IMG/VR virus record: IMGVR_UViG_3300031885_003729
Span: 1-37,848 of that record
DNA: 37,848 nucleotides
Direction: 5' to 3' (one strand)
Origin: a virus
The notes beneath the pieces are model-generated. The model made no database searches. It was given only the letters and a program-made list of their open reading frames with translations, and was not told where the DNA came from. Below, piece by piece: positions 2,038-33,785 of this stretch. Position numbers and translations under genes: made by a program. Position 1 is the stretch's first letter, and each line of letters starts with the position of its first letter.

Positions 2038-2076
2038 AAGGGAAGTGCCCGGTTGCGACCACCGGGCACTTCCCTT
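2038..2076. terminator. Hairpin terminator between convergent genes
   Basis: A perfect 13-bp stem (2040-2052 with 2062-2074), extendable by two A-T pairs, encloses a 9-nt loop. It lies 3 bases after the stop of the upstream plus-strand gene and just beyond the end of the converging minus-strand gene. There is no long T run on either side, so it is either a weakly T-tailed bidirectional terminator or an mRNA 3'-end stabiliser. Confidence 0.75.
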
Positions 2077-4017: not shown

Positions 4018-5334
4018 ATGGCGAACATCCAAATTAACGAAGTACGTACCGTCAAGTACGTCGGTGGCGTGCAGACGTTCGAGATCTTTGTTACTTGCAC
4101 GGGCAAGGGGGACCTTCCGCACACAGGGATCTTCGTCCACAAGATTCTCGATAGCCGGAACTCTCTGGACGATGAATTCCAGAGGGTCGCGAACGTCGCG
4201 GACATCACGACCTACGAGGCTGATCGGGATGAGGCCAATCGGTTGCATGCGGAGTACTGGCTCTCGTCAACGGTGACGCTGGCCTATACCGAGATTGAAG
4301 TCGCCGATCAGGCTGTGCGGATCCTCTCTGATCGGGTCAACACGCTGGCTACGGACTGGGAGACTTACCAGGCATCGTTTGATACCCACGAAGAGTATCC
4401 TGGTGGGCGAGACTATACTTTCCCGACTGGGGACCCGACGTACATCGAAGAGGTCAAAGCTGACTATGTAACTGCAGTGGCTGCATATGACACGGCAGTG
4501 ACTGATCTCGCTACAGCGACAGAAGATTACACTGACGCGACGACTGCGTTGTCCTCGGCCAACTCCGAGCTCTCGAACTGGACCGCGCAGTATAATCTGA
4601 TTCATGGCGGGGGCGGTGAAGCGGGTATCTATAACCAGTTTTCGTTTGCGAATACGAAATTCGACGGCCTTTACGATGATGGGAGCAATATCGTCTCGTC
4701 GATCAATACGTTCCTGTCGGCGCTTGATCAAATCATTCTTGCTCCCAACAGTGGTAGCTATTTGGTCCGATTGACGATGAATTCGGCTGAGGCGTATACG
4801 TCTCCTGGACCAAGTTCAATTGGAAAAACGGTGACCTCTTCTGGTGGGGCAACAGGTGTGCTCCATTACTATCAGGATTCAACCAAGGAGTGGTGGGTCA
4901 CTAACGAGGTCGGGACCTTTTCGGCAAACCAGACGGTTTTGGTTCCTCCTGTGCCTGGGTCGGTGGGGGCCGGTACAATCCAGACCGTGAGCAAGTTCAC
5001 ACCGGTTCCCTACTACTCGATCTACGAAGCGCTCAAGGCCGCCAAAGTGTCGTTTGTTGGGATATTGAATGAGGCCGAGATCGCGAGCGGCCAGATCGCG
5101 AGTGGGTTGGCTTACTGCGATGGGGTGTCGATAGCCACCCAATCAATCATTCAAGGCGAGAAGGAACCTGCACGGGATGCCGCGCAAGTCGAGGTCAATG
5201 AAAAGAAAAAGATTCAACTGGACGCGACAGCCGCGGTGAATGTGGCTTACGATGCTGTGATCACTGCTTATGATACAGTGAAAGAGGTGTGCCCGGATTG
5301 GAGTCCGGACCCACCTCTCCCTGCCCAACCCTAA
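4018..5334 (+). CDS. Large Thr/Ala-rich phage protein, probable virion component
   Basis: 438 residues. A beta-like N-terminal domain (about 1-60) is followed by long alanine/threonine-rich helical stretches (about 90-185, e.g. YDTAVTDLATATEDYTDATT). A Gly/Ser-rich beta section (about 235-330) comes next, then another helical stretch (about 385-425) and a proline-rich end. Alternating coiled-coil and beta segments are typical of fibres, baseplate or head-decoration proteins. GAGG lies 6 bases upstream of the ATG. It abuts the converging minus-strand gene with 1 base between stops. No family recognised; virion role inferred. Confidence 0.6.
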   Translation: MANIQINEVRTVKYVGGVQTFEIFVTCTGKGDLPHTGIFVHKILDSRNSLDDEFQRVANVADITTYEADRDEANRLHAEYWLSSTVTLAYTEIEVADQAVRILSDRVNTLATDWETYQASFDTHEEYPGGRDYTFPTGDPTYIEEVKADYVTAVAAYDTAVTDLATATEDYTDATTALSSANSELSNWTAQYNLIHGGGGEAGIYNQFSFANTKFDGLYDDGSNIVSSINTFLSALDQIILAPNSGSYLVRLTMNSAEAYTSPGPSSIGKTVTSSGGATGVLHYYQDSTKEWWVTNEVGTFSANQTVLVPPVPGSVGAGTIQTVSKFTPVPYYSIYEALKAAKVSFVGILNEAEIASGQIASGLAYCDGVSIATQSIIQGEKEPARDAAQVEVNEKKKIQLDATAAVNVAYDAVITAYDTVKEVCPDWSPDPPLPAQP

Positions 5335-5335
5335 C

Positions 5336-6607
5336 CTACCAGTCGATCGTTGAGATCATCCTGGGCAATTTGTTGAACAACGTGGCGTAGCTGCGGACGA
5401 AGTTATCGCAGTTACGGCTGAAGAATGAGATCCTCAATCCGGCGGAATCCGCGCAGATGGAGTCAATCGCTGAGTACGGGGACCATCCGTCGCCGGTCTT
5501 GAACCGATGGTAACTACAGAGCTCTAGATAGGACCCAAGAGTTTCGTTCGTGATCTCGTGCTGGATGATATGGTCGGTATTACGAGTGTAGTGTCCCCGA
5601 TACCAGTAGCGGGCTTTTAGCCAAGTTTTGGCTACGTCGAAGTTGACATTGCAAAAATACCTTCCTCGTTTGGAATGGAATGTGGCTTGTTGAAAGTCCG
5701 CGGACAGTCCACGAAAGATCAGTAGGAATCCTTGAGAGAAAACCTCGTGACCACCCACGTTGATGAAGAACTTTAGATCTTCCAGACTGAGCCCACGTCG
5801 TTGGCAAACTGTGCGGACCTTGGACATCGCTCGCTCAAGAATGTCTTCTTTCGTGTGTGGACCTCCGCATCGAGAAATCGTCCAGCGCTTTGTGCAATAA
5901 TGGACAAAGTAGCACTCACCGCAATGCTCGAGCTTCTTTCTGGTCTTATGTCCTTCTTGAGCAGCCGCACTCGCTGCTTTTATCCTATGTTCTATGATAT
6001 CGGGCATGTTGATGTGCGCGACTCCGTAAGGGATACTGCGTCTTCGGCGATATTGCTCGATGTGAGTTGTAGGGACCCAGAACATGTCAGGTTGCCCTTG
6101 CACTGGCTTGGTTCGTCTGATTGCTCGCGATTCGTAACGATGATGATGGTGCTTGGGCAAATCGTCGTAACGAAGGAAGTTGGAGTCCGAGCTCTCTGAG
6201 GGCTTGAGTGTGGTGGTGAGCGATTTTGAGAAGCATGGCAAGCTGCCCAGGTGAAACTGGCAGGTTTGGCAACCGTTGAACTTTGACAGGCTAGGGCAGT
6301 TTTCTAGAATCTCGTTCCGGGTCAGGTATCTCTTTTCGTTTTGAAACCAGGTCTTTTTGAACTGCCAGTTGGCATTGCGCTCATCGTCGTAGTGCGGCCG
6401 GGAGGTCGCAATGACTAGCCCTTTGCTAGAGTAGTAGGTGAAGAATCGTCCTAATCCGTAAGAGGTAGCAAGTGGGATCAGCTGTGGGAGTTGTGCTTCA
6501 AAGTCGTGGATCCCGGAGAATCCGAGTCCCCGGAGCTCTGAGTTATCGTAGGATCGGTTGTCGTCAAGACGGATTTCCAGTGCTACTGGGAATACAAAGA
6601 TTGGCAT
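5336..6607 (-). CDS. Cys-rich protein downstream of the reverse transcriptase
   Basis: 423 residues with two Cys clusters: C104-x8-C113-x2-C116-x8-C125 and C229-x2-C232-x5-C238-x8-C247. The second (CGECYFVHYC) has the CX2CX5C spacing seen in zinc knuckles and in some Fe-S clusters. A native run of four histidines occurs at residues 153-156, next to a basic region (about 160-190). The start is supported by GGAGAAG just upstream and lies inside the end of the RT gene (44-base overlap), so the two are probably co-translated. No known family recognised. The N-terminus (IFVFPVALEI) weakly echoes the protein on the other side of the RT (VYFFPIELEP), hinting at shared ancestry, but this is a guess. 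Confidence 0.75.
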   Translation of the reverse strand: MPIFVFPVALEIRLDDNRSYDNSELRGLGFSGIHDFEAQLPQLIPLATSYGLGRFFTYYSSKGLVIATSRPHYDDERNANWQFKKTWFQNEKRYLTRNEILENCPSLSKFNGCQTCQFHLGSLPCFSKSLTTTLKPSESSDSNFLRYDDLPKHHHHRYESRAIRRTKPVQGQPDMFWVPTTHIEQYRRRRSIPYGVAHINMPDIIEHRIKAASAAAQEGHKTRKKLEHCGECYFVHYCTKRWTISRCGGPHTKEDILERAMSKVRTVCQRRGLSLEDLKFFINVGGHEVFSQGFLLIFRGLSADFQQATFHSKRGRYFCNVNFDVAKTWLKARYWYRGHYTRNTDHIIQHEITNETLGSYLELCSYHRFKTGDGWSPYSAIDSICADSAGLRISFFSRNCDNFVRSYATLFNKLPRMISTIDW

Positions 6608-7616
6608 CTTTCTTCTCCAGAGATGCGTCGGCAGCCTCGTACAGCCGAAGAAGCTTGGTTGCCTTGATCGGGTTGATCTGTTTGAAGTAGTTGATCTTGC
6701 CGAAGAGTTTGGTCATAAGAGCAGGTAGGGTGATGGGTTGACCTTCGGCGTGATAAGGGAAATCTTCCCCGTAGCACAGGACGTCGTGTAGAATTCCGCG
6801 AACTCGCAGGTACTCTTCGATGGGGATGTTGGTCTTTTCGTTGACCACCATTCCAAGAACTTTCTGCCTCTGGAAGTAATGTTCCCGGTGGGTTTTTTTG
6901 TAGTGAACTTTGAATCCAGCGCTCTGTACGATTCTGGTCACCAGTCCAATAATCTTTCTGGTCGTCTCTTGGGTTTGTACTTCGGGGTGACTGATGTCGA
7001 GGTCGTCAGAGTACCGGGTGTAGACCCAGTTGGGGTCGAGATCGCTGAGTTCGGCGAGTATCTCTCGATCGAACCGATAGTCGGCGATGACATTGGCAAT
7101 GTATCCGGAGCTGGACGCGCCCTGTGGGACGTAGTTCTCGTACGTCAGCAATGCGGCGAGCAGCCCGGAGACCTGCTGGTTGTAGCCGATTTCGTGAAAG
7201 TAGTTGCGGATCATCGATTGTTTCACGCTGGGAAAGAAGTCTTTGAGGTCCATGCTGATGATGATCTTTCTTCCAACGTGCTGGGCAGCGGTGAAGGAAC
7301 ACGCGCGTCCGGGGACATAGGCGCCGATATGAGAGCCCATCGGTATTTTCTCAAGAATATTGAGAAGAATCGATCTCTGGGCGAACTTCATACGATTTTT
7401 GGGGCACTGGATATGGCGCCACTTACCGTTAGGTTTGGGGATCCGAAAGATCCGGTATTGCTCGTTCCGGGATCGGACTAACCACCACATCGCCCAATTG
7501 TTCATCCCCAGGTGGTACGAGAGCGTCGTGTCGTCGATTGCTAGCGGCAGTTCCGGGTACCTCAAGCGCGTCTGAAACTCCAGCGCACTCAGTCGACTCT
7601 GATAGTAGGTAGTCAT
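6564..7616 (-). CDS. Retron-like reverse transcriptase
   Basis: 350 residues from the ATG at 7616, preferred over an ATG at 7643 because GAAGGAGA lies 7 bases upstream. RT blocks in order: RIFRIPKPNGKWRHI (about 55-69), GSHIGAYVPGRA, motif A SMDLKDFFPS (D123), motif B VPQGASSSGYIAN (163-175), motif C RYSDDLDIS (D204, D205), then QRQKVLGMVVN (249-259). The retron-diagnostic signatures are present in altered form: NAxxH appears as AAQH preceded by T (109-113), and VTG as VLG (253-255). All catalytic aspartates are intact. There is no maturase or endonuclease domain. Retron RTs make short DNA on a structured RNA usually encoded just upstream; here that space is protein-coding. It is the fourth gene of a tight minus-strand row. 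Confidence 0.92.
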   Translation of the reverse strand: MTTYYQSRLSALEFQTRLRYPELPLAIDDTTLSYHLGMNNWAMWWLVRSRNEQYRIFRIPKPNGKWRHIQCPKNRMKFAQRSILLNILEKIPMGSHIGAYVPGRACSFTAAQHVGRKIIISMDLKDFFPSVKQSMIRNYFHEIGYNQQVSGLLAALLTYENYVPQGASSSGYIANVIADYRFDREILAELSDLDPNWVYTRYSDDLDISHPEVQTQETTRKIIGLVTRIVQSAGFKVHYKKTHREHYFQRQKVLGMVVNEKTNIPIEEYLRVRGILHDVLCYGEDFPYHAEGQPITLPALMTKLFGKINYFKQINPIKATKLLRLYEAADASLEKKDANLCIPSSTGNPS

Positions 7617-8328
7617 GAGAGTCTCCTTCGAAGTCTTGCACATATTTGTCTGTGTTCTTTTTTACTTCTTCAGCGAGGCTCAAGCCGGGGATGCTCATAC
7701 GATCCCGACAGAGTTTGTCCAATGGGTGACAATCACCCGCGATTCCTTTGGTGATGAACGCGCAGGCCGAGCAGATGGGCTTATGAACTTGCCCCTTGTA
7801 GATGAGGTAAGCGTGGGTTCTGACCATTCGGCGCATCTGCCGATAGTACGGCGGGGAAGCAAGCTGAGTTGATTCGTAAGCTTTCTCGGGGAGAAGTCCA
7901 AAAACCGGATCGGATCTTTCCTTTCTCGTTTTTTGCGAGACGAGCAATGGAACAACAGAGACGTAATTCGCATAGTTTTGGCGAAAGTGTTCTTTCGCTT
8001 TCTGGGTGAATTCACTCCTGTTCGTCTTAGAAGATGGAGAAGGGAAACCGATTTTGCCGATTAGTTCGTATTCGCCGCCGCGATTCATGGGTAGACTGCG
8101 CAGCTCGCGGAAGTGGACCTTGTTCAAATTGACGAACGACTTGGCGAAGTCCTCTTCATAGATCGATGGATGAGGGTGGACGATTGCTGCGCGAAAAATG
8201 CGGGGGAGCTCGGGTTCGAGCTCTATGGGAAAGAAATAGACTTTCTTTCCTACGGCATGCCCGCCTGACACGTCAGTGTCCTTGATCTCCATCTTGAAGG
8301 CGATCGGGTTACCAACGCTTTTTGACAT
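7429..8328 (-). CDS. Cys-rich protein upstream of the reverse transcriptase
   Basis: 299 residues from the ATG at 8328, chosen because GGAGGGG lies 4-5 bases upstream; a longer frame to 8382 would overlap the VWA gene further. The middle is basic and beta/helix mixed. Residues 186-207 hold C-x2-C-x10-C-x6-C (CSAC ... DC ... LC), a probable metal site. The last 62 codons overlap the first part of the RT gene in another frame, which is unusually long for this compact genome. The overlapped tail is low-complexity-like and may have been gained by loss of an earlier stop. No family recognised. It probably acts with the RT, given the overlap and shared direction. Confidence 0.7.
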   Translation of the reverse strand: MSKSVGNPIAFKMEIKDTDVSGGHAVGKKVYFFPIELEPELPRIFRAAIVHPHPSIYEEDFAKSFVNLNKVHFRELRSLPMNRGGEYELIGKIGFPSPSSKTNRSEFTQKAKEHFRQNYANYVSVVPLLVSQKTRKERSDPVFGLLPEKAYESTQLASPPYYRQMRRMVRTHAYLIYKGQVHKPICSACAFITKGIAGDCHPLDKLCRDRMSIPGLSLAEEVKKNTDKYVQDFEGDSHDYLLSESTECAGVSDALEVPGTAASNRRHDALVPPGDEQLGDVVVSPIPERAIPDLSDPQT

Positions 8329-9202: not shown

Positions 9203-9861
9203 GACTTTTTCTCCTCTTTGATGTTCTCGATGCAGCGATCCCGATACCCGGCGATGAAGCCTTCTTTGAACTCAGTGGATTTCCCCTTGAGCTGATCGTC
9301 GACCTTATGTAGTTCGTCGAGTTGCTTTCTGACTTTGCTTTTCTCGTCAGAGGCCATAACCGCGACAAGGTCGTAATACTGCTCGAACGACTTGTTCCGG
9401 GGGAGATCTTTGTAGGGTTCTTTCCCAGGAATGACTCCGCCCAGTTTGTCGTCGTACATCTGACCAGAGTGCTTCGAGTAATTTTTCATCAGGTCGTTGA
9501 CTGCGAGGTCCATGGTAATCGGAACGATCTGCTTGGCGTAGAACTTCTCCTCTTCGTTACTAATGCTCCGGTATTTCCGTAGCGCGCGAGTCTGGTGTTC
9601 GAGCACGATGTGGTGGACCTCGTGCTCGATCAGCATGATCAGAAACTCTAGCGACGGGATTTGGTCAATCCCCTCTTCGTTCACTAAGAGCATGTAGCCA
9701 TTGGGTGTCAGGGTCACTCCGATGATTGGTACGCTCTTGGTTCGTAGGATTGGGAGCGAGGAGACAACCTTGGAGAAAAACATGAAGTTCCCCTGATTGG
9801 ACAGATGGCAGAGGATGTCGGACAATGAGACCTTGACGGGTTCCTTGACGGGTTCGACCAT
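9199..9861 (-). CDS. Putative zinc metallopeptidase-like protein (DUF2201 N-terminal type)
   Basis: 220 residues from the ATG at 9861, selected for the AAAGGAGA about 7 bases upstream over a longer frame to 9933 that would run into the divergent gene. The key motif is LIEHEVHHIVLEH: HExxH with H80, E81 and H84, plus a further H89 that could be the third ligand. The surrounding helix and the later 'DLAVNDLM' segment match the putative metallopeptidase half of DUF2201/COG3864. Protease activity is not established for this family. First gene of the row leading through the VWA protein to the RT. Confidence 0.8.
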   Translation of the reverse strand: MVEPVKEPVKVSLSDILCHLSNQGNFMFFSKVVSSLPILRTKSVPIIGVTLTPNGYMLLVNEEGIDQIPSLEFLIMLIEHEVHHIVLEHQTRALRKYRSISNEEEKFYAKQIVPITMDLAVNDLMKNYSKHSGQMYDDKLGGVIPGKEPYKDLPRNKSFEQYYDLVAVMASDEKSKVRKQLDELHKVDDQLKGKSTEFKEGFIAGYRDRCIENIKEEKKS

Positions 9862-9919: not shown

Positions 9920-10912
9920 GTGACTGCGTTCATTGACCAATTTTCAGACCATGGCTACCAGATGCTCAACGCTTGCCTTCAGGACTTCCCGGCTATCGAT
10001 GGTTTCATCAAAAATGCGGAACTAGATCCAGTGGAAAATGAGAGGCGGCCCGAGTACGCATTTGCGTGGCCCGAGCGGCGCATGTTTCCCATCGACTCTC
10101 CGGACCAGGCAGCGTTGTCTCGGCTGTACATGGCTAAGCAGGCGAGCCTGCCAGATGGCGTTGTCGCCAACTGCGACAAGGCGCTTTCGATCTATGGCGT
10201 CGAGTTTCCACTCCAGCAGGAAAAAGTAGCCTCTGTCGAGGACGATTCTTGCTACCTTTTACCACAAATCAAACGCTTTTCGGTGAAGACCGCCGAGGAT
10301 CTTCAGCTTGCTTCAGAGGCCCTCGAGCGAAACCAGCGTCGACTCAGTGTTGAGGACCAGGCCACAGCGGCCATGAATCTTGTGAAGCACGCGGTGCTTC
10401 ACAATACTCGCGTACCGAGTCTGATGCTGAAGCTCGCTGGAATGACCGTCTGCGAGACCCAGGTCCTCCGGGATTGGCTGGACGCGCGGGCTCATGTGGC
10501 CCAGGACGCGGACATTGGGTTTGGATTCACAAAGCTTTCCGAGGTATTAGAGCAAGAAGCCCCATTCATCACCGATCGGGACGAGCTGATCAAGATCTCC
10601 GGGGTGATCCAAGAATTGGACGAAGCCGCGGGTTTTCCCCAGCTCTACGGGAAGAAGCTGCTGAATCCTCTCGAATCCGTTTTCAATACGGAAAAAATGG
10701 CGGCTGAGACGATCGAGCTCGCCGGACGGCCAGTGCCGGTCGAGACTCTCTTTGGGACTGACCCCCAGGCCTATGCTGACGCCTTCGGGCCAGAGATCCT
10801 GGAGGACATCGGGGATGGCGCGGGCGGGATCGATCCTGAGAAGGTCATGATCGTATTGCCGACCATGCCGCGGGACCTCTTGAACACCTTTCTGGCCCAA
10901 CTGGGGGTCTGA
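9920..10912 (+). CDS. Uncharacterised phage protein
   Basis: 330 residues from a GTG start with AAAGGAGG about 7 bases upstream. An N-terminal segment with FAWPERRMFPIDSPDQAALS (about 48-67) reads like a conserved core. Most of the rest is helical, with an acidic Gly-rich patch near 295-305. No catalytic motif, Cys cluster or membrane segment was found. The next gene starts directly after its stop. The position beside the AAA+/VWA genes and upstream of TerL suggests a head-morphogenesis or virion role, but this is only positional. A strong 11-bp intragenic hairpin lies at 10380-10404. Confidence 0.7.
   Translation: MTAFIDQFSDHGYQMLNACLQDFPAIDGFIKNAELDPVENERRPEYAFAWPERRMFPIDSPDQAALSRLYMAKQASLPDGVVANCDKALSIYGVEFPLQQEKVASVEDDSCYLLPQIKRFSVKTAEDLQLASEALERNQRRLSVEDQATAAMNLVKHAVLHNTRVPSLMLKLAGMTVCETQVLRDWLDARAHVAQDADIGFGFTKLSEVLEQEAPFITDRDELIKISGVIQELDEAAGFPQLYGKKLLNPLESVFNTEKMAAETIELAGRPVPVETLFGTDPQAYADAFGPEILEDIGDGAGGIDPEKVMIVLPTMPRDLLNTFLAQLGV
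10380..10404. repeat. Intragenic 11-bp perfect inverted repeat
   Basis: TTGTGAAGCAC (10380-10390) and its exact complement GTGCTTCACAA (10394-10404) flank a 3-nt GCG loop. The element lies entirely within the 9920-10912 coding sequence (encoding around NLVKHAVLHN). Confidence 0.85.
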
Positions 10913-11662
10913 GTGTCGATCGACCTCAAAGTCGCGCTGCCTGTCTTGTTCCGGACCGCTCTCCATGCGATGACCTTCTACGAAGAGAAGGATTTCAAGA
11001 GTGCTCCAGACAAGGCCAAAGAATACTTGAAAGATGAGAAGACTTCGCCACTTGGGTTGTATTTTTCATTGGTTCAGTTGTTCCAGGCGAACTCTTTTCT
11101 GGTTTGGGAACCAGAGTCGATTTGGCTCGAGTTGTTCCATGAGCACCAGATCGATTTGCCCCTGGTCAATCGGGACAAGATCTCGGCGTTCATCACGGCT
11201 GTCCACACTGACTCGTTTCATTGGGATGCACTCATCTTTGAGAATGCCAGCAAGGCATTCAATCATGAGATGTCCACACCCGATACTGTTCAAGAAGCTA
11301 CCCCAGCCGAACTGTCCTGGGCGGTCTTTCTCTTCGAGATCTTGGCTCGCCATACGGGCCGAGACCAGGCGTATGACTACGAACCGATCAAATACGCGGC
11401 CCTATCTTGCCACCGCGCTGGGTTGGTTCTGGCCCCAGAGTTACTAGTCTTTGCTCAGGAAGAGCTCGATAAGTTCAATCGAGAAACGACCGTTGCCCAG
11501 GCGGTTTCCGACGCCTGGGCAACGGTCAACAAGGAGAAGCTCGAAGAGCTTTCCTTGGCGGAGTCACCTGTAGACGTCCAGCTGGGGAAGCTGGCCGCTA
11601 TCCATCTGTATGTGGGGGAGCAGGCGGAAGCCCTTCATAGAGAAATAGCCAGCCTAACGTAG
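10913..11662 (+). CDS. Uncharacterised helical phage protein
   Basis: 249 residues from a GTG placed immediately after the upstream stop, with a modest GGGGG 7 bases before. Almost entirely alpha-helical by eye, acidic (many E and D), with aromatic-rich helices. No signature motif or membrane segment. Co-transcribed and probably coupled with the preceding 330-residue protein. The last 65 bases overlap the end of the convergent gene at 11598-12257. The coding sequence contains a striking 15-bp perfect inverted repeat at 11488-11527. Function unknown. Confidence 0.7.
   Translation: MSIDLKVALPVLFRTALHAMTFYEEKDFKSAPDKAKEYLKDEKTSPLGLYFSLVQLFQANSFLVWEPESIWLELFHEHQIDLPLVNRDKISAFITAVHTDSFHWDALIFENASKAFNHEMSTPDTVQEATPAELSWAVFLFEILARHTGRDQAYDYEPIKYAALSCHRAGLVLAPELLVFAQEELDKFNRETTVAQAVSDAWATVNKEKLEELSLAESPVDVQLGKLAAIHLYVGEQAEALHREIASLT
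11488..11527. repeat. Intragenic 15-bp perfect inverted repeat
   Basis: Left arm 11488-11502 (GACCGTTGCCCAGGC) is the exact reverse complement of right arm 11513-11527, with a 10-nt loop. It is not followed by a T run on either strand, and lies about 135 bases before the end of its host gene. Confidence 0.9.
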
Positions 11663-12257
11663 ATTCCATCGGCAGTAAGATCGAGAGTAGTTTCTTTCGG
11701 ATCTGTCGGGTCTGGTCGTAGTCGACTCGATTTCGGAGTGCGGCAGCCAGTCGCTGGGGGTAGTCTTTTACTTCCTCCCGGGGGTCCAGCTTGACCAGTC
11801 GATCGATCTCTTGGAAATAGGAGAGGATCTCCCCTCCCGTTTGCATGAGGAGCAGGTTGAGGAATTTATCCGTACAGGCGGCTGGAAAGCACACCCGTTC
11901 GACCATCCACTGTGGATGCCAGAAATCCCACAGGTCCTGCTTGATCGGTTCTGCAGTGACTTCTGTGAACAGTTTCTGCAGAAAGGAAACGGCATTCAGT
12001 GTATCGTAGAGGGCCAAAGCGAGCTTTTGGGCGTAGGACTTTCCTTCGGTTTCTTTCTGCCCTGCTGTGGACCACATATCGACACACTTGAAGAAGGCTC
12101 TGGCCCTAGGGATAGGGAGCAGGCTCAGCCCTCGAATAAGCCGAGCTAGCTCGTCGGGATTCGGAATCAGTTCTGTTCGGACCAAAGCGACTGCGAATTC
12201 GCAGATCTCCCGTGTGGTTTTGGTTTCGATCCCATCATAGAATTCGTCGAGATTCAT
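11598..12257 (-). CDS. Hypothetical protein partnered with MoxR-like ATPase
   Basis: 219 residues, predominantly helical, with two or three scattered Cys and no clear motif. The start overlaps the stop of the upstream AAA+ ATPase gene as ATGA (12254-12257), so the two are almost certainly co-translated and may form a complex. The tail (EGLPPAPPHTDG) overlaps the convergent plus-strand gene by 65 bases. It lacks a VWA MIDAS motif, so it is not the usual VWA partner of a MoxR ATPase; that partner is more likely the gene at 8309-9202. Confidence 0.7.
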   Translation of the reverse strand: MNLDEFYDGIETKTTREICEFAVALVRTELIPNPDELARLIRGLSLLPIPRARAFFKCVDMWSTAGQKETEGKSYAQKLALALYDTLNAVSFLQKLFTEVTAEPIKQDLWDFWHPQWMVERVCFPAACTDKFLNLLLMQTGGEILSYFQEIDRLVKLDPREEVKDYPQRLAAALRNRVDYDQTRQIRKKLLSILLPMESTLGWLFLYEGLPPAPPHTDG

Positions 12258-13450
12258 GCAGAGGCCTCCTTGAACTTCTTCTCAATCTTCTCAGCCGTCC
12301 CGAAGATCGATCGGGTGATCTTGACCGTGTCCGAGTGTCCCTGCATGGCGATCGAGAGTCTGGCCGCGTAGCCTTGGTGACCATCGACGCTCATCGTATC
12401 GAGTTTCTGGAAGAGCGCTTTGGCGAACTCGAGCGGGAGATCCTGAATGAACTGAACGAACCCATCGAGCTCGCTCTTCTCGGGCAGCTTCTCCGACTCC
12501 ACCATGGTCAGTGACAGACCGTCGATCAGGACCGAGAGGCGATCATTCCGACCGTCTTCGATCAGTTTATGCACCCGTCCCTGCACTGTGTCGTACTTGA
12601 AGATCAGGCTGGGGTCGATGAGAGACTCGCGATCCCGGAGCCAGGTCATGAAGTTGTCGGTCTGACCGAAGCCGATGTGACCAGCGATCTTGTACTTCAG
12701 GGTGGTGATGTGCTTGGCGATGTCCATCTTGTTCGTGTCCATCCACTGCAGTGTCTGACTCACCTTCTCCCAGGAGGCGGGGTTCGAGGCAATCTTGCCT
12801 GCGTCCCGGGCCTGGATATCGACAAGCGCCGAGGGATCTCGGCGGATGTAGTCGACCACGAAGGGGTGGAACTTGTCCTTGGCGTAGCCGAGCCAGACCA
12901 TCGGGTCGGGCTGGATGCCCACGAAGCAAAGCCGGCGCCGGAAGGCCGGGTCCTTCTCGGCCTCATTTACCAGGTAATTCTCTTCCGAGGGGTTCATGCA
13001 GGCCATGATCCGAACGTGCTTGGGCAAGGTGAAGCCGCCGAACCGGCGGTCTTCCATCATGGTGAAGGCTGCGTTCATCACGGCCTTCTCGCCGCGGTTC
13101 CACTCGTCCAGGACCAGCAGCGTCGGCTGGTTGCTATCAATCACGCTCTTGATGGTGTTCTCGCACAGGAAGGCGTAGGTCCCTGAGCCGTTGTTCGGGT
13201 AGGGGATGCCAGAGATGTCCTCGGGCTCCAGGTGGGCCAGGAACAGGAACACCACGCGCCAGCCCTGTGATTCGGCGATCTGCCGAGCGGCTTGAGACTT
13301 TCCGATACCGGTTTCGGACACGAAGACTGGGACATGGTGGCATTCGAAGCAAAGTAGGGCTACCCGCTTGGCTTCCTCTAGTGAGCAGGGGATGACGCCC
13401 AAGTTATCCCAGAAGTAGTTCTTCGCGTTGTTTTCTTTTTTCTCCGCCAT
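12254..13450 (-). CDS. MoxR-like AAA+ ATPase
   Basis: 398 residues from the ATG at 13450, chosen for AAGGAGA upstream; a longer frame to 13519 would run into TerL. Motifs: Walker A ETGIGKS (46-52), Walker B LLVLDEWN (111-118), sensor-1 ACMNPSE (150-156) and an arginine-finger-like AFRRRL (169-174). The C-terminal half is a helical lid-type region with no second enzyme domain. MoxR ATPases act as ring-shaped remodelling chaperones with VWA-domain partners. A VWA protein with a separate HExxH protein lies 2.4 kb downstream on the same strand. The likely job is assembly or activation of a phage complex, but no target can be named. Confidence 0.88.
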   Translation of the reverse strand: MAEKKENNAKNYFWDNLGVIPCSLEEAKRVALLCFECHHVPVFVSETGIGKSQAARQIAESQGWRVVFLFLAHLEPEDISGIPYPNNGSGTYAFLCENTIKSVIDSNQPTLLVLDEWNRGEKAVMNAAFTMMEDRRFGGFTLPKHVRIMACMNPSEENYLVNEAEKDPAFRRRLCFVGIQPDPMVWLGYAKDKFHPFVVDYIRRDPSALVDIQARDAGKIASNPASWEKVSQTLQWMDTNKMDIAKHITTLKYKIAGHIGFGQTDNFMTWLRDRESLIDPSLIFKYDTVQGRVHKLIEDGRNDRLSVLIDGLSLTMVESEKLPEKSELDGFVQFIQDLPLEFAKALFQKLDTMSVDGHQGYAARLSIAMQGHSDTVKITRSIFGTAEKIEKKFKEASA

Positions 13451-13463
13451 TTGAGGCTTCTCC

Positions 13464-13491
13464 TTGTCAAGATTCGATTTTTTGATAAACT
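13464..13491 (+). promoter_or_regulatory. Sigma70-like promoter for TerL
   Basis: TTGTCA at 13464-13469, 16-bp spacer, TAAACT at 13486-13491, leaving a very short leader to the ATG at 13505. The -35 box overlaps the ribosome binding site of the divergent AAA+ gene. Confidence 0.35.
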
Positions 13492-13504
13492 GGATTATGG
13501 AAAC

Positions 13505-15124
13505 ATGAGTGCTAACCAACAGATACGACCTTCGGTTACTCGGTCCAAACTTGCCGAAACTGTCCTTACGGTGGACGGTAAGACGCTTTCATTGCGCGAC
13601 TATCCTTTCTTCTACGATGTTTACGATATCCAACACCCCGAAATACTTCTTAAAACTGGGCGTCAGGTAAGTAAAAGTACGTGCTGTGCAAACTTGATCA
13701 TTACCAACTCAATCGTTCATCCGCACTTCAAGACGCTCTACATCTCGCCGACCAAAGAACAAACTTCAAAATTCTCGAATACCCGTTTGTCCAAGATCAT
13801 CTACTACTCTCCGATGATCTATGACAACTTCTATGATGGGCGAGGAACACACAATGTCCTGTTGCAAATTCTGAGGAATGGTTCCGAAATCAGTTTGTCC
13901 TACGCCGACGACGACCCAGATCGTATTCGTGGAATCTCAGCTGATCAAGAGTTCATCGATGAGGTTCAGGACATTGTCTACGATGCAGTCATTCCAGTGG
14001 TCAAGGAGTGTATGGCTAACTCGGACTATGGCTTTATCACCTATGCTGGAACCCCCAAGACGATGGACAACACGATCGAATTTCTCTGGAAGCACAGCAC
14101 CCAGAGCGAATGGATCATGAAGTGCGAGGGGTGTGGGAATTGGCAGTTCGTCGATTCAGTGAGGTCGATTGGGATGCGTGGCCTCGTGTGCGTCAAGTGT
14201 GACCATGCCCTGAACCCTAGGTTGGGGAAGTGGTACAACTTCAACCCCATGGCTAGCATTAAGGGGTTTCATATCTCTCAACCGATTTTGCCGAAAAATA
14301 ATGAGGTGCCTGAACGCTGGAAGCGAATTCTACAGAAGATGCAGATATATTCCGAGACCAAGTTCAAGAATGAGGTGCTCGGGGTCTCGGATGCAGTCGG
14401 CTCTCGCTGCATTACCCAAGAAGATTTGATCGCGCTTTGTGACAATGAATACTTCGTTGCACTCCCGATCTCTCCCCGGCTTGAGCAAGGGATCCGAACG
14501 ATTGTGGCTGGGGTAGATTGGGGCGGTGGGTCAGATGCCAAAGGGGCCGTCTCTCGGACTGTTCTCTGGGTGTTTGGCTTGACCGAGGACTTCAAGCATA
14601 AGACTATGTTTTTCAAGGTATTTTCTGAAGAGAACCCTTCGGCCAATGTCGATGAGATCGCTGAGATCTGTTCGCAGATCGGGGTGAAGTTCGTGGTGGG
14701 TGATGCGGGTGGTGGGGCGATCGCCAATTCGCGGCTGCGCGATATTCTTGGCCCCCACCGGGTGGGTCAGAGTCAGTACGGTGGTGGAGGGCAGGGAATC
14801 AAGTTGATTCGTTGGAGTCCACAGGCGAACCGATTCATGGTGAACCGGACAGCGGTGATCGATTCTTACATTTTAGCTCTCAAAAACCACGAGGTCATAT
14901 ACCCGAACGTTCGACAGATGGCTGTCTCAATCCAAGATATCATGAACGTTTACGAAGAACGCATTCAAAGTGGTTTGTCCGAGAGACGGATCTGGACTCA
15001 TCCCCCGACCGCCCCGGACGATTGTCTTCACGCCCAGGTCTACGCCTGGTTGGCCATGAAGATCGTCCGGGGTGAGGTCGAGTTCTTCTACGAGTTGCGG
15101 GATACGGAGTGGCAGGTGGCCTAA
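13505..15124 (+). CDS. terL: Terminase large subunit (DNA packaging ATPase/nuclease)
   Basis: 539 residues. The ATPase half has Walker A GRQVSKS (52-58), Walker B FIDEVQD (150-156) and a coupling-type YAGTPK (180-185). The nuclease half has acidic sites GVDWGGG (D338), VVGDAGGG (D400) and a C-terminal PDDCLHA. Between the halves, C207-x2-C210 and C229-x2-C232 form a zinc knuckle, also seen in some other phage terminases. TerL pumps DNA through the portal and cuts the concatemer. The start was chosen at the first ATG clear of the divergent gene; its Shine-Dalgarno is weak. A frame upstream to a TTG at 13451 is less likely. The stop abuts the converging SMR-like gene. Confidence 0.93.
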   Translation: MSANQQIRPSVTRSKLAETVLTVDGKTLSLRDYPFFYDVYDIQHPEILLKTGRQVSKSTCCANLIITNSIVHPHFKTLYISPTKEQTSKFSNTRLSKIIYYSPMIYDNFYDGRGTHNVLLQILRNGSEISLSYADDDPDRIRGISADQEFIDEVQDIVYDAVIPVVKECMANSDYGFITYAGTPKTMDNTIEFLWKHSTQSEWIMKCEGCGNWQFVDSVRSIGMRGLVCVKCDHALNPRLGKWYNFNPMASIKGFHISQPILPKNNEVPERWKRILQKMQIYSETKFKNEVLGVSDAVGSRCITQEDLIALCDNEYFVALPISPRLEQGIRTIVAGVDWGGGSDAKGAVSRTVLWVFGLTEDFKHKTMFFKVFSEENPSANVDEIAEICSQIGVKFVVGDAGGGAIANSRLRDILGPHRVGQSQYGGGGQGIKLIRWSPQANRFMVNRTAVIDSYILALKNHEVIYPNVRQMAVSIQDIMNVYEERIQSGLSERRIWTHPPTAPDDCLHAQVYAWLAMKIVRGEVEFFYELRDTEWQVA

Positions 15125-23734: not shown

Positions 23735-23774
23735 AAGCAATGCCCAGGATAGGGTACCGTCCCGGGCATTGCTT
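23735..23774 (-). terminator. Terminator between the ssDNA-binding-like gene and the nuclease gene
   Basis: Stem GCAATGCCC (23737-23745) with GGGCATTGC (23764-23772), extended by two outer A-T pairs and inner pairs after one mismatch. Read on the minus strand it is followed by TTTCTTCC. It lies downstream of the 23784 gene stop and just before the nuclease start, so it may limit read-through into the replication operon. Confidence 0.7.
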
Positions 23775-23783
23775 GTCGTTTGA

Positions 23784-24614
23784 CTACAGGTTAGCGAAGT
23801 CCGCCATGTTTTTGCCGGGGGCCTCATTGGTCCCTACAGCCGTGGCAATCACTGCAGCGTTCTCGGCGAGCTTGGTGGCCAAGTCGGCTTTTACGGCCAT
23901 GCGCATTTGTTTGAGCGCTTTGTTCAGTTCGGCCCCAGCGAACTGCAGTTCCTTGGGCGATGCCTCGACGAACGTTGTGACTGCTGCGTGGTACGGTCCT
24001 TTGGGCCCTTTGATCTCTTCGGTGTCGAGGGAGTAAACCCGGGTCCAGAGGTTTTGTGCGGCGCTCATGCACTGGCTGATGATGTTCCGGCCAGCTTTGG
24101 CGCTGCCGCCACTGAAGGATACCTTGTACATCTTGGCGAAGTCGAGGGTGATGAAGAAGAAGTTCAAGAAGTCGTTGCAGTCTTGGCGCTGCTTGTCCTT
24201 CCAGGGGCGATCTGGGCACTGAGAACAGATCAGTCCGGCGGTGCTGTGCTCCTTGTCTTCGGAGATGCAGATCTCCTTCTCGCCCATTTCACCGAACTTC
24301 ATTCGGTTTTCCCAGGTGAAGATCGGGATGAGTAGCATCGGTCTTTGATAGATCTCACCAGTGTCTGGAGAATAGAGGTCTCCGTTCTTGGCGGGGAGAT
24401 TGGTGCGGGACATCGCTTGTTTGATCCGAATCATCGGTGGCCGGTAAACATACCGGGACGTGTCGATGTCCCCCAATTCTAGCTTGCTCTCGGCAGGGTT
24501 GAAAAGATTGAAGAGACCAGTCACGTTCTCTCGATACTTCTCAGGAACAGCGGCGGAAAGTTGTTCGAGGCCAAGTTTCTCGGAAGGCGCTACTTTTTGC
24601 ATCTCAGTAGTCAT
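23784..24614 (-). CDS. Candidate ssDNA-binding protein
   Basis: 276 residues, AAGGAGA 6 bases upstream of the ATG. The layout has a charged N-terminus, then beta-rich segments (YRPPMIRIKQAMS, PMLLIPIFTWENRMKF), a Cys motif CSQCPDRPWKDKQRQDC (C-x2-C-x12-C), more aromatic beta strands (NFFFITLDFAKMYKVSFSG) and an Ala-rich helical C-terminus. Phage ssDNA-binding or recombination-mediator proteins with an embedded zinc motif show this order, and the gene stands upstream of nuclease, primase and polymerase. There is no enzyme motif. The name is inference. A strong terminator follows, which would allow higher expression than downstream genes. Confidence 0.55.
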   Translation of the reverse strand: MTTEMQKVAPSEKLGLEQLSAAVPEKYRENVTGLFNLFNPAESKLELGDIDTSRYVYRPPMIRIKQAMSRTNLPAKNGDLYSPDTGEIYQRPMLLIPIFTWENRMKFGEMGEKEICISEDKEHSTAGLICSQCPDRPWKDKQRQDCNDFLNFFFITLDFAKMYKVSFSGGSAKAGRNIISQCMSAAQNLWTRVYSLDTEEIKGPKGPYHAAVTTFVEASPKELQFAGAELNKALKQMRMAVKADLATKLAENAAVIATAVGTNEAPGKNMADFANL

Positions 24615-24743: not shown

Positions 24744-24822
24744 TTTTCTTGCTCACCTCCTTTTCTGTCGATAAGCTGATTGCGTATCACCACAATCAAA
24801 CCGACTGGTGCTTGGTTCACGC

Positions 24823-25620
24823 ATGGACCGTACTTTTAGCCAATATTACAAAGAGGTTTCTAATACTAAGCAGCTTTCCCCACACGAAGAGCGCGAACTT
24901 TTTTATCGCTACCAGCGAAAGAAAGACTTCGTTGCACGGGATCACCTTGTTCACAATTGCTTACGTACGGTAGTTAAAATCGCTGCCCGCTATTCGCGGG
25001 ACTCTGAGATCTTCAAGGATTTGATCTCGTCAGGAAATATTGGCATTCTCCATGCGCTTGACCGTTACGACCCTAGCTATAATACGCGTTTCCTCTCCTA
25101 TGCTACCTACTGGATTCATCTGTTCATTCGTGAAGAAGCGAGTTCGAATCTCATCCCGCTCCCCAAATGGCGGAAAAAAGCATTGGCCAAGATTGGTCGT
25201 GAAAAAGAGAAAATATACCAGAGAGAAGGGCGCAAGGCAGAAGAAGCCGATCTGCGCGGTTGTGCCCAACTCTCTGATGTGCAACTCAGGAGACTGCTTC
25301 GTTCGGATGGCAATCCACAATTCACGGTAGCTGAGGAAACGTACGACCCCCATCTATCGGTGGCTGGAAACTTTGGTGGGGACATTGACGCGTCACGAAC
25401 GCGCGAGATGTTCAAAGAACAAGTTCTTCGATTACCCCACAGAGAACGATTTGTTCTCCTGAGCTACTACGGTCTGATTACACCCTCGATGTCTCTTCGT
25501 CAGATAGGTTCAATCATCAACATGAGCTCTGAGCGTGTTCGTCAGATCAAGGTCCAAGCGATGATCCGCGTTCGCGGGAAGCTTAGTCATTGCAATGAGT
25601 TCACGTCTTCTTGTCAGTGA
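24823..25620 (+). CDS. Sigma70-family RNA polymerase sigma factor
   Basis: 265 residues from the ATG at 24823 (MDRTFSQYY). Region 2 (about 36-105) is clear: ARDHLVHNCLRTVVKIAARY, FKDLISSGNIGILHALDRYD, then TRFLSYATYWIHLFIRE, matching core-binding 2.2 and the DNA-melting/-10 recognition 2.3-2.4 helices. Region 3 is short and basic. Region 4 (about 203-258) has LPHRERFVLLSYYG and the helix-turn-helix SLRQIGSIINMSSERVRQIKVQA for -35 recognition. There is no region 1.1, so this is an alternative-type sigma. No good Shine-Dalgarno precedes the ATG. With a phage beta subunit in the same window it probably directs phage promoters. Its 3' end overlaps the convergent ParB-like gene by 7 bases. Confidence 0.93.
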   Translation: MDRTFSQYYKEVSNTKQLSPHEERELFYRYQRKKDFVARDHLVHNCLRTVVKIAARYSRDSEIFKDLISSGNIGILHALDRYDPSYNTRFLSYATYWIHLFIREEASSNLIPLPKWRKKALAKIGREKEKIYQREGRKAEEADLRGCAQLSDVQLRRLLRSDGNPQFTVAEETYDPHLSVAGNFGGDIDASRTREMFKEQVLRLPHRERFVLLSYYGLITPSMSLRQIGSIINMSSERVRQIKVQAMIRVRGKLSHCNEFTSSCQ

Positions 25621-33332: not shown

Positions 33333-33785
33333 CTATTTGAGGTGAGCGGCGTTTTCTTCCGCAAAATTTGGAAACATGGGTAACGTCTTGTCATCGACGT
33401 TGGCTTCAAAGAGCTTGGTCGGTTTGGCCTCGGTGATCTCGGGACGAAGCTCCATCTCGGCGTCAATTCGGTATATCGTGCCCAGGGGATCCATGGCGAG
33501 AAGAATCATGGGCCAGTCATCTTCTTTATCGTAACCGGATTTGTAGATTTTGTAAGCAATGGTCATAGCAGCCCAAGCAGGACCTTCACGGCTAATATCC
33601 GTGAAGATCTCTTCAGCCCAAGCAGGACCTTCACGGCTAATATCCGTGAAGATCTCTTTACTTTTTTTGAACTCTTCGCGAATCTGTTCTTCTCCTAATT
33701 CCACCTCCCTGTCGTACAAACTGTTCGCTACTATGAACCGATAGACTACGTGACGTTTTTGGTTTTTGGGCGAAATCGTTGACAT
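33333..33785 (-). CDS. Hypothetical protein with 15-residue tandem duplication
   Basis: 150 residues. Residues 44-73 contain an exact in-frame tandem duplication of 15 residues (EIFTDISREGPAWA plus one), encoded by two perfect 45-bp DNA copies. The N-terminus is basic, the middle charged, and the C-terminal half mixed alpha/beta (DDWPMILLAMDPLGTIYRID). AAAGGAG lies 13 bases before the ATG, longer than usual, and the first 43 codons overlap the tail of the upstream membrane-protein gene. No family recognised. The duplication looks recent because the copies are identical. Confidence 0.65.
   Translation of the reverse strand: MSTISPKNQKRHVVYRFIVANSLYDREVELGEEQIREEFKKSKEIFTDISREGPAWAEEIFTDISREGPAWAAMTIAYKIYKSGYDKEDDWPMILLAMDPLGTIYRIDAEMELRPEITEAKPTKLFEANVDDKTLPMFPNFAEENAAHLK
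33569..33658. repeat. Perfect 45-bp tandem duplication, each copy with an 8-bp hairpin
   Basis: Bases 33569-33613 and 33614-33658 are identical. Each copy contains CTTCACGG, a 7-nt CTAATAT centre and the complementary CCGTGAAG. The repeat is in frame with the minus-strand gene 33333-33785. Confidence 0.95.

What the first reader, a model, noticed from the sequence alone, without database searches (positions are those of the whole stretch)
11488..11527. 15-bp perfect inverted repeat inside a coding sequence
A perfect 15-bp stem with a 10-nt loop is far beyond chance in about 40 bases of coding DNA and lacks a T tail. It could be an intragenic attenuator, RNA-processing site, recombination site or packaging-related signal.
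Basis: seen in the sequence. Interest (0 to 1): 0.5.

Follow-up and report, generated by a model that had tools for sequence, protein, structure and literature searches.

The report
Terminator hidden inside opposite-strand gene
The perfect hairpin is most likely the stop signal for transcription of a neighbouring phage operon that runs the other way, written into the coding sequence of the gene it faces; a number of related phages have a differently spelled hairpin in the same stretch.

Summary
The hairpin is real: a 16-bp perfect stem with an 8-nt loop at 11488-11527, the most stable 44-nt stretch of the window. It lies in a genuine + strand gene, p249 (10913-11662). "No T tail" holds only for the + strand. 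Read leftward, the stem is followed by GTTTCTCG and begins 70 nt after the stop of p219, last gene of a leftward MoxR-p219 operon. I read it as that operon's intrinsic terminator, embedded antisense in the convergent gene.

p249 and MoxR meet tail to tail in 58 of 61 related loci. Among 43 non-redundant junctions (window included), 22 have a p249 3'-end hairpin more stable than synonymous recoding predicts (p<0.05), against 3 and 7 of 43 for two upstream stretches. Terminator scores above 0 occur antisense in 8 of 43, on the sense strand in 0. One clade shows compensatory changes on two of four count measures. The nearest relative lacks the stem, and about half of the junctions show none, so this is recurrence with turnover. 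No RNA data were available. Terminators inside convergent coding sequence are already described in E. coli (PMC2174442, passages).

The parts
11488..11527 (-). 16-bp perfect hairpin, read as intrinsic terminator of the leftward MoxR-p219 operon
11480..11487 (-). T-containing tail after the stem on the minus strand (5'-GTTTCTCG-3')
   Evidence: sequence
10913..11662 (+). p249, convergent gene that holds the hairpin; conserved in related phages, function unknown
11598..12257 (-). p219, last gene of the leftward operon; no homologue found in the loci or phage records searched
12254..13519 (-). MoxR-like AAA ATPase gene, first gene of the leftward operon (ORF as listed; true start may be further in)
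5280..5321 (-). second hairpin of the same layout: in the 3' end of + gene 4018-5334, downstream of - gene 5336-6607; weak tail (d -17.8)
2038..2076 (-). 16-bp perfect hairpin between convergent genes, minus-strand tail TTTCTCTAG, terminator-like (comparison)
23735..23774 (-). hairpin just after the stop of gene 23784-24614 (-), tail TTTCTTCCG, terminator-like (comparison)

Best explanation
The hairpin is a rho-independent (intrinsic) transcription terminator on the minus strand. RNA polymerase transcribing the leftward MoxR-p219 operon runs past the p219 stop into the 3' end of the convergent gene p249; the GC-rich 16-bp hairpin forms in the RNA and the following U-containing stretch releases the transcript roughly 115-120 nt past the stop. 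This limits antisense transcription into p249 and collisions with rightward polymerases. It sits in a variable stretch of p249 where synonymous and tolerated amino-acid changes can build a stem. Shown by computation: the hairpin, the strand asymmetry of the tail, the position behind a convergent operon, the excess over coding-aware chance here and in many related phages. Inferred: that polymerase stops here, that it is the host core enzyme (a sigma-70-type factor is encoded at 24808-25620), and any benefit to the phage.
For: Leftward terminator score 19.7 against -16.8 rightward; one of three positive sites of the window under the stricter stem cut, all three leftward with tails beginning TTTCT. 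Junction p249/MoxR tail to tail in 58 of 61 loci. Of 43 non-redundant junctions, antisense score >0 in 8, sense in 0, other stretches of the same loci 0.5%. Hairpin beyond synonymous recoding (p<0.05) in 22 of 43 at the p249 3' end against 3 and 7 of 43 in two upstream stretches; below -22 kcal/mol in 16, 0 and 0 of 43. Antisense tail richer in T in 14 of 18 hairpins below -20 kcal/mol. One clade: 18 cells changed on both sides against 8.7 in shuffles, covariation score 0.374 against 0.219, each 0 of 500. Second convergent junction: 4 of 6 testable cases with a hairpin beyond recoding.
Against: The minus-strand tail is short and interrupted: the score is 19.7 only if the outer T-G pair counts as stem, and -1.6 without it; the tool's own terminator scan does not list the site. 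The nearest relative has no stem, and about half of the 43 junctions have none beyond recoding chance. Some strong stems of relatives have poor antisense tails (L037, L048, L053, L077), and two of the 14 tail wins are marginal. Sense-strand scores beyond recoding (p<0.05) also occur in 9 of 43 at the 3' end (2 and 2 of 43 upstream), so strand specificity is not complete. In the clade, two other measures do not exceed shuffles (6 pairs against 5.0, 150 of 500; 19 types against 17.0, 64 of 500). No RNA data.
Confidence: 0.8

Rival explanations
1. Mutational by-product: a template switch at a quasi-palindrome made a perfect inverted repeat in a tolerant stretch of p249, with no function.
For: The stretch is poorly conserved in the protein, the nearest relative lacks the stem, and presence of a stem is scattered on the tree (13 changes, shuffled mean 14.3).
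Against: Stems concentrate at the 3' end facing MoxR and are rare or weaker elsewhere in the gene; tails are mostly richer in T on the MoxR strand (14 of 18); both-sided changes in one clade. It may still be how the stem arose.
Confidence: 0.1
2. Sense-strand element of the p249 mRNA: a 3' stabilising stem, attenuator or RNA-processing site, or a stem acting on both transcripts.
For: The stem folds as well on the + strand (-35.8 kcal/mol); sense scores beyond recoding in 9 of 43 at the 3' end.
Against: It lies within codons that ribosomes must read, 135 nt before the stop; + strand tail has no T run, d -16.8; sense score >0 in 0 of 43.
Confidence: 0.06
3. Recombination, packaging or protein-binding site that uses the palindromic DNA.
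For: Perfect palindromic arms; the terminase gene is about 2 kb away (13451-15124).
Against: Single copy, no exact match in viral contigs, and stems of relatives differ in sequence and exact position, which a sequence-specific site would hardly tolerate.
Confidence: 0.03

Closest known systems
Rho-independent terminators at convergent overlapping genes of E. coli (PMC2174442, passages)
   Same: A terminator hairpin of one gene lies in the coding sequence of the convergent gene; the paper counts 19 of 58 overlaps with one for one gene and 2 with one for both.
   Different: Phage; here the signal recurs at one homologous junction across a phage family with different stems.
Bidirectional intrinsic terminators between convergent genes (e.g. 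PMC3027695, passages)
   Same: Hairpin at a tail-to-tail junction.
   Different: No T run after the stem on the + strand, so it looks one-directional; upstream A tracts are called an essential feature of bidirectional ones (PMC12207403, passages).

Membership tests
Intrinsic (rho-independent) terminator | Stable GC-rich hairpin with a short loop | tested here: met
   16 bp, 8-nt loop, about -35 kcal/mol
Intrinsic (rho-independent) terminator | U tract directly after the stem | tested here: inconclusive
   Minus strand GTTTCTCG; d 19.7 with the outer T-G pair in the stem, -1.6 without; not listed by the scan
Intrinsic (rho-independent) terminator | Lies downstream of a gene end on its own strand | tested here: met
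   Stem begins 70 nt after the p219 stop; in relatives the antisense hairpins lie mostly 80-180 nt inside the facing gene that ends at the MoxR stop
Intrinsic (rho-independent) terminator | RNA 3' ends form there without Rho | not testable with these tools
   No RNA data at hand
Bidirectional terminator | T-rich tails after the stem on both strands | tested here: not met
   + strand tail AACAAGG, d -16.8

The most novel reading that the evidence does not exclude
In this phage family a leftward operon is ended, as a lasting feature of genome architecture, by a terminator encoded antisense within the 3' end of the facing gene. The signal is repeatedly lost and rebuilt with new sequence at shifted codons, so that selection holds position and strand rather than sequence, and it shapes the synonymous sites of the host gene.
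Probability: 0.55. Interest if true: 0.5.

Novelty: new member of a known kind. Interest (0 to 1): 0.35.

Why it matters
It explains a striking intragenic palindrome as an ordinary kind of element read on the other strand, and gives a comparative case of one stretch of DNA serving as codons for one gene and stop signal for another. It also warns that stem conservation between homologues is a poor test of function where a signal may be kept by turnover.

Tried and rejected
Single-protein searches found no relative: p249 and TerL in viral contigs, p249 in phages; the MoxR query opened the family. The genome-contig scan with the p330 alignment gave no relative. Rfam gave no match at gathering scores. 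p249 has no PDB fold match at E 0.001 and one viral match, an uncharacterised phage protein, so its function stays unknown. A motif shared by three stems (TGCCC[A/G]G) was seen and not tested. Two other tail-to-tail junctions of the window (25614/25620 and 32724/32740) show no strong embedded hairpin in the lists printed (one search printed the best 28 of 76). Paper searches; only passages of PMC1852404, PMC12207403, PMC3027695 and PMC2174442 were seen.

Rows dropped: L078-L080 (no convergent MoxR found); then 16 of 59 junctions more than 90% identical over the last 250 nt of p249. The tree used a cut of p<0.02 on the values (19 of 43 with hairpin). In one search eight loci had no convergent ORF found and two were cut; near-identical ones were skipped by the script without being listed; in L054 and L058 the partner gene was recognised by weak scores (91 and 54 bits). 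The terminator score is my own script of the d'Aubenton-Carafa formula, recalled and not taken from a call.

Full report
The window is the whole of a 37,848-base IMG/VR virus record. It encodes a terminase large subunit and a reverse transcriptase, and a family A DNA polymerase, a primase-like protein, ParB, an SNF2-type helicase, RuvC and a sigma-70-type factor, so it is a piece of a tailed-phage genome.

At 11488-11527 there is a perfect 16-bp inverted repeat with an 8-nt loop, the most stable 44-nt stretch of the window at -8.7 sd. The encoded protein does not explain it: 0 of 300 synonymous recodings of the last 90 codons reached its stability.

The gene around it, p249 (10913-11662, +), is real. 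Relatives were found in 61 IMG/VR loci, and the alignment of 11 of them, window included, runs to the last residues. The hairpin covers codons 192-205, a poorly conserved stretch modelled as a short helix (193-204) ahead of the long C-terminal helix. Gene order is kept in the loci laid out: p330 and p249 rightward, MoxR leftward, terminase rightward, with a small extra gene in some. In 58 of 61 loci p249 and MoxR end against each other with a gap of -41 to +184 bp; in three no convergent MoxR was recognised. The window is the odd one: an extra leftward gene, p219, lies between them. p219 has AAGGAGG upstream and a coding score like that of p249, but no homologue in loci L003-L019 or the phage records.

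On the strand of MoxR and p219 the stem begins 70 nt after the last stop codon and is followed by GTTTCTCG. With my script of a published terminator score (formula recalled) it scores 19.7 leftward and -16.8 rightward. Under the stricter stem cut it is one of three positive sites in the window, all leftward, all with tails beginning TTTCT; five Markov copies of the window gave 1, 0, 0, 0 and 0. A laxer cut adds one rightward site. Against this, the score needs the outer T-G pair counted as stem (without it d is -1.6), and the tool's own scan does not list the site.

The relatives weigh between a lone oddity and a function. Of 43 non-redundant junctions, the window among them, 8 score above 0 antisense to the p249 3' end and none on the sense strand; other stretches of the same loci do so in 0.5% of tests. 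In a first recoding test over the last 90 codons 24 of 43 held a hairpin beyond chance at p<0.05. In a second, the last 210 nt did so in 22 of 43, the next 210 nt upstream in 3 and the next in 7; hairpins below -22 kcal/mol occur in 16, 0 and 0. Terminator scores beyond recoding (p<0.05) were found antisense in 16, 2 and 5 of 43 and on the sense strand in 9, 2 and 2, so strand specificity is clear for the strongest scores but not complete. Among 18 hairpins below -20 kcal/mol the antisense tail is richer in T in 14, two of them by little; L037, L048, L053 and L077 go the other way. The stems differ in sequence and in codon position.

In one clade the stem sits on the same codons. Ten sequences, including L071 which has no good stem, show 18 cells with both partners changed against 8.7 in shuffles and a covariation score of 0.374 against 0.219 (each 0 of 500). 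The number of pairs with such changes (6 against 5.0; 150 of 500) and of further pair types (19 against 17.0; 64 of 500) do not stand out. Sliding the register by one lowers paired cells from 83% to 65% or 57%. The ten are related, so these are not probabilities. On a p249 tree built without the hairpin stretch the trait needs 13 changes, about as many as shuffled labels (mean 14.3), at least 7 of them forced by well-supported branches: it comes and goes. The window's nearest row on that tree, L020, lacks it.

A second convergent junction, at the end of the reverse-transcriptase gene set, has the same layout. Of six cases that could be tested, four (window, L013, L019, L054) have a hairpin beyond recoding (p<0.05) in the 3' end of the facing gene, a fifth (L058) only a high terminator score, and L014 neither; in the window that hairpin has a weak tail.

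I therefore read the hairpin as the intrinsic terminator of the leftward MoxR-p219 operon, written into p249. Shown: structure, tail asymmetry, position, recurrence beyond coding-aware chance. Inferred: termination itself, and use of host RNA polymerase (suggested by the sigma factor; the record may be a fragment, so a phage polymerase elsewhere is not excluded). How the junctions without a stem end their operon is open.

The kind is known: in E. coli, 19 of 58 convergent overlaps have a rho-independent terminator for one gene and 2 for both (PMC2174442, passages). What seems less familiar is the repeated rebuilding of the signal at one junction across a phage family. I saw no paper on that in the listings, which cover open-licence papers only.

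Noticed in passing
6564-7643 (-) with 5336-6607 (-): Reverse transcriptase (RVT_1; best PADLOC models RT_XIII and RT_III-A, none tested against a cut-off) beside a 423-aa partner with no Pfam, PHROG or PADLOC match; RT relatives lie at like positions in L013-L016, L018 and L019.
   Followed up: partly
33580-33655: Protein 33333-33785 (-) repeats the peptide EIFTDISREGPAWA in tandem, and the DNA holds two like hairpins 33580-33610 and 33625-33655.
   Followed up: no
9593-9635 and L009:2740-2780: Quasi-palindromes; in the window it encodes IEHEVHHIVLEHQ of the putative metallopeptidase, perhaps forced by the codons of a histidine/glutamate-rich motif.
   Followed up: no
10380-10404 and L014:6498-6524: Perfect 11- and 12-bp stems with 3-nt loops inside the p330 gene; whether they lie on like codons was not checked.
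   Followed up: no
2038-2076, 11488-11527, 23735-23774: The three strongest stems share TGCCC[A/G]G in the 5' arm; possibly a common style of terminator, not tested.
   Followed up: no
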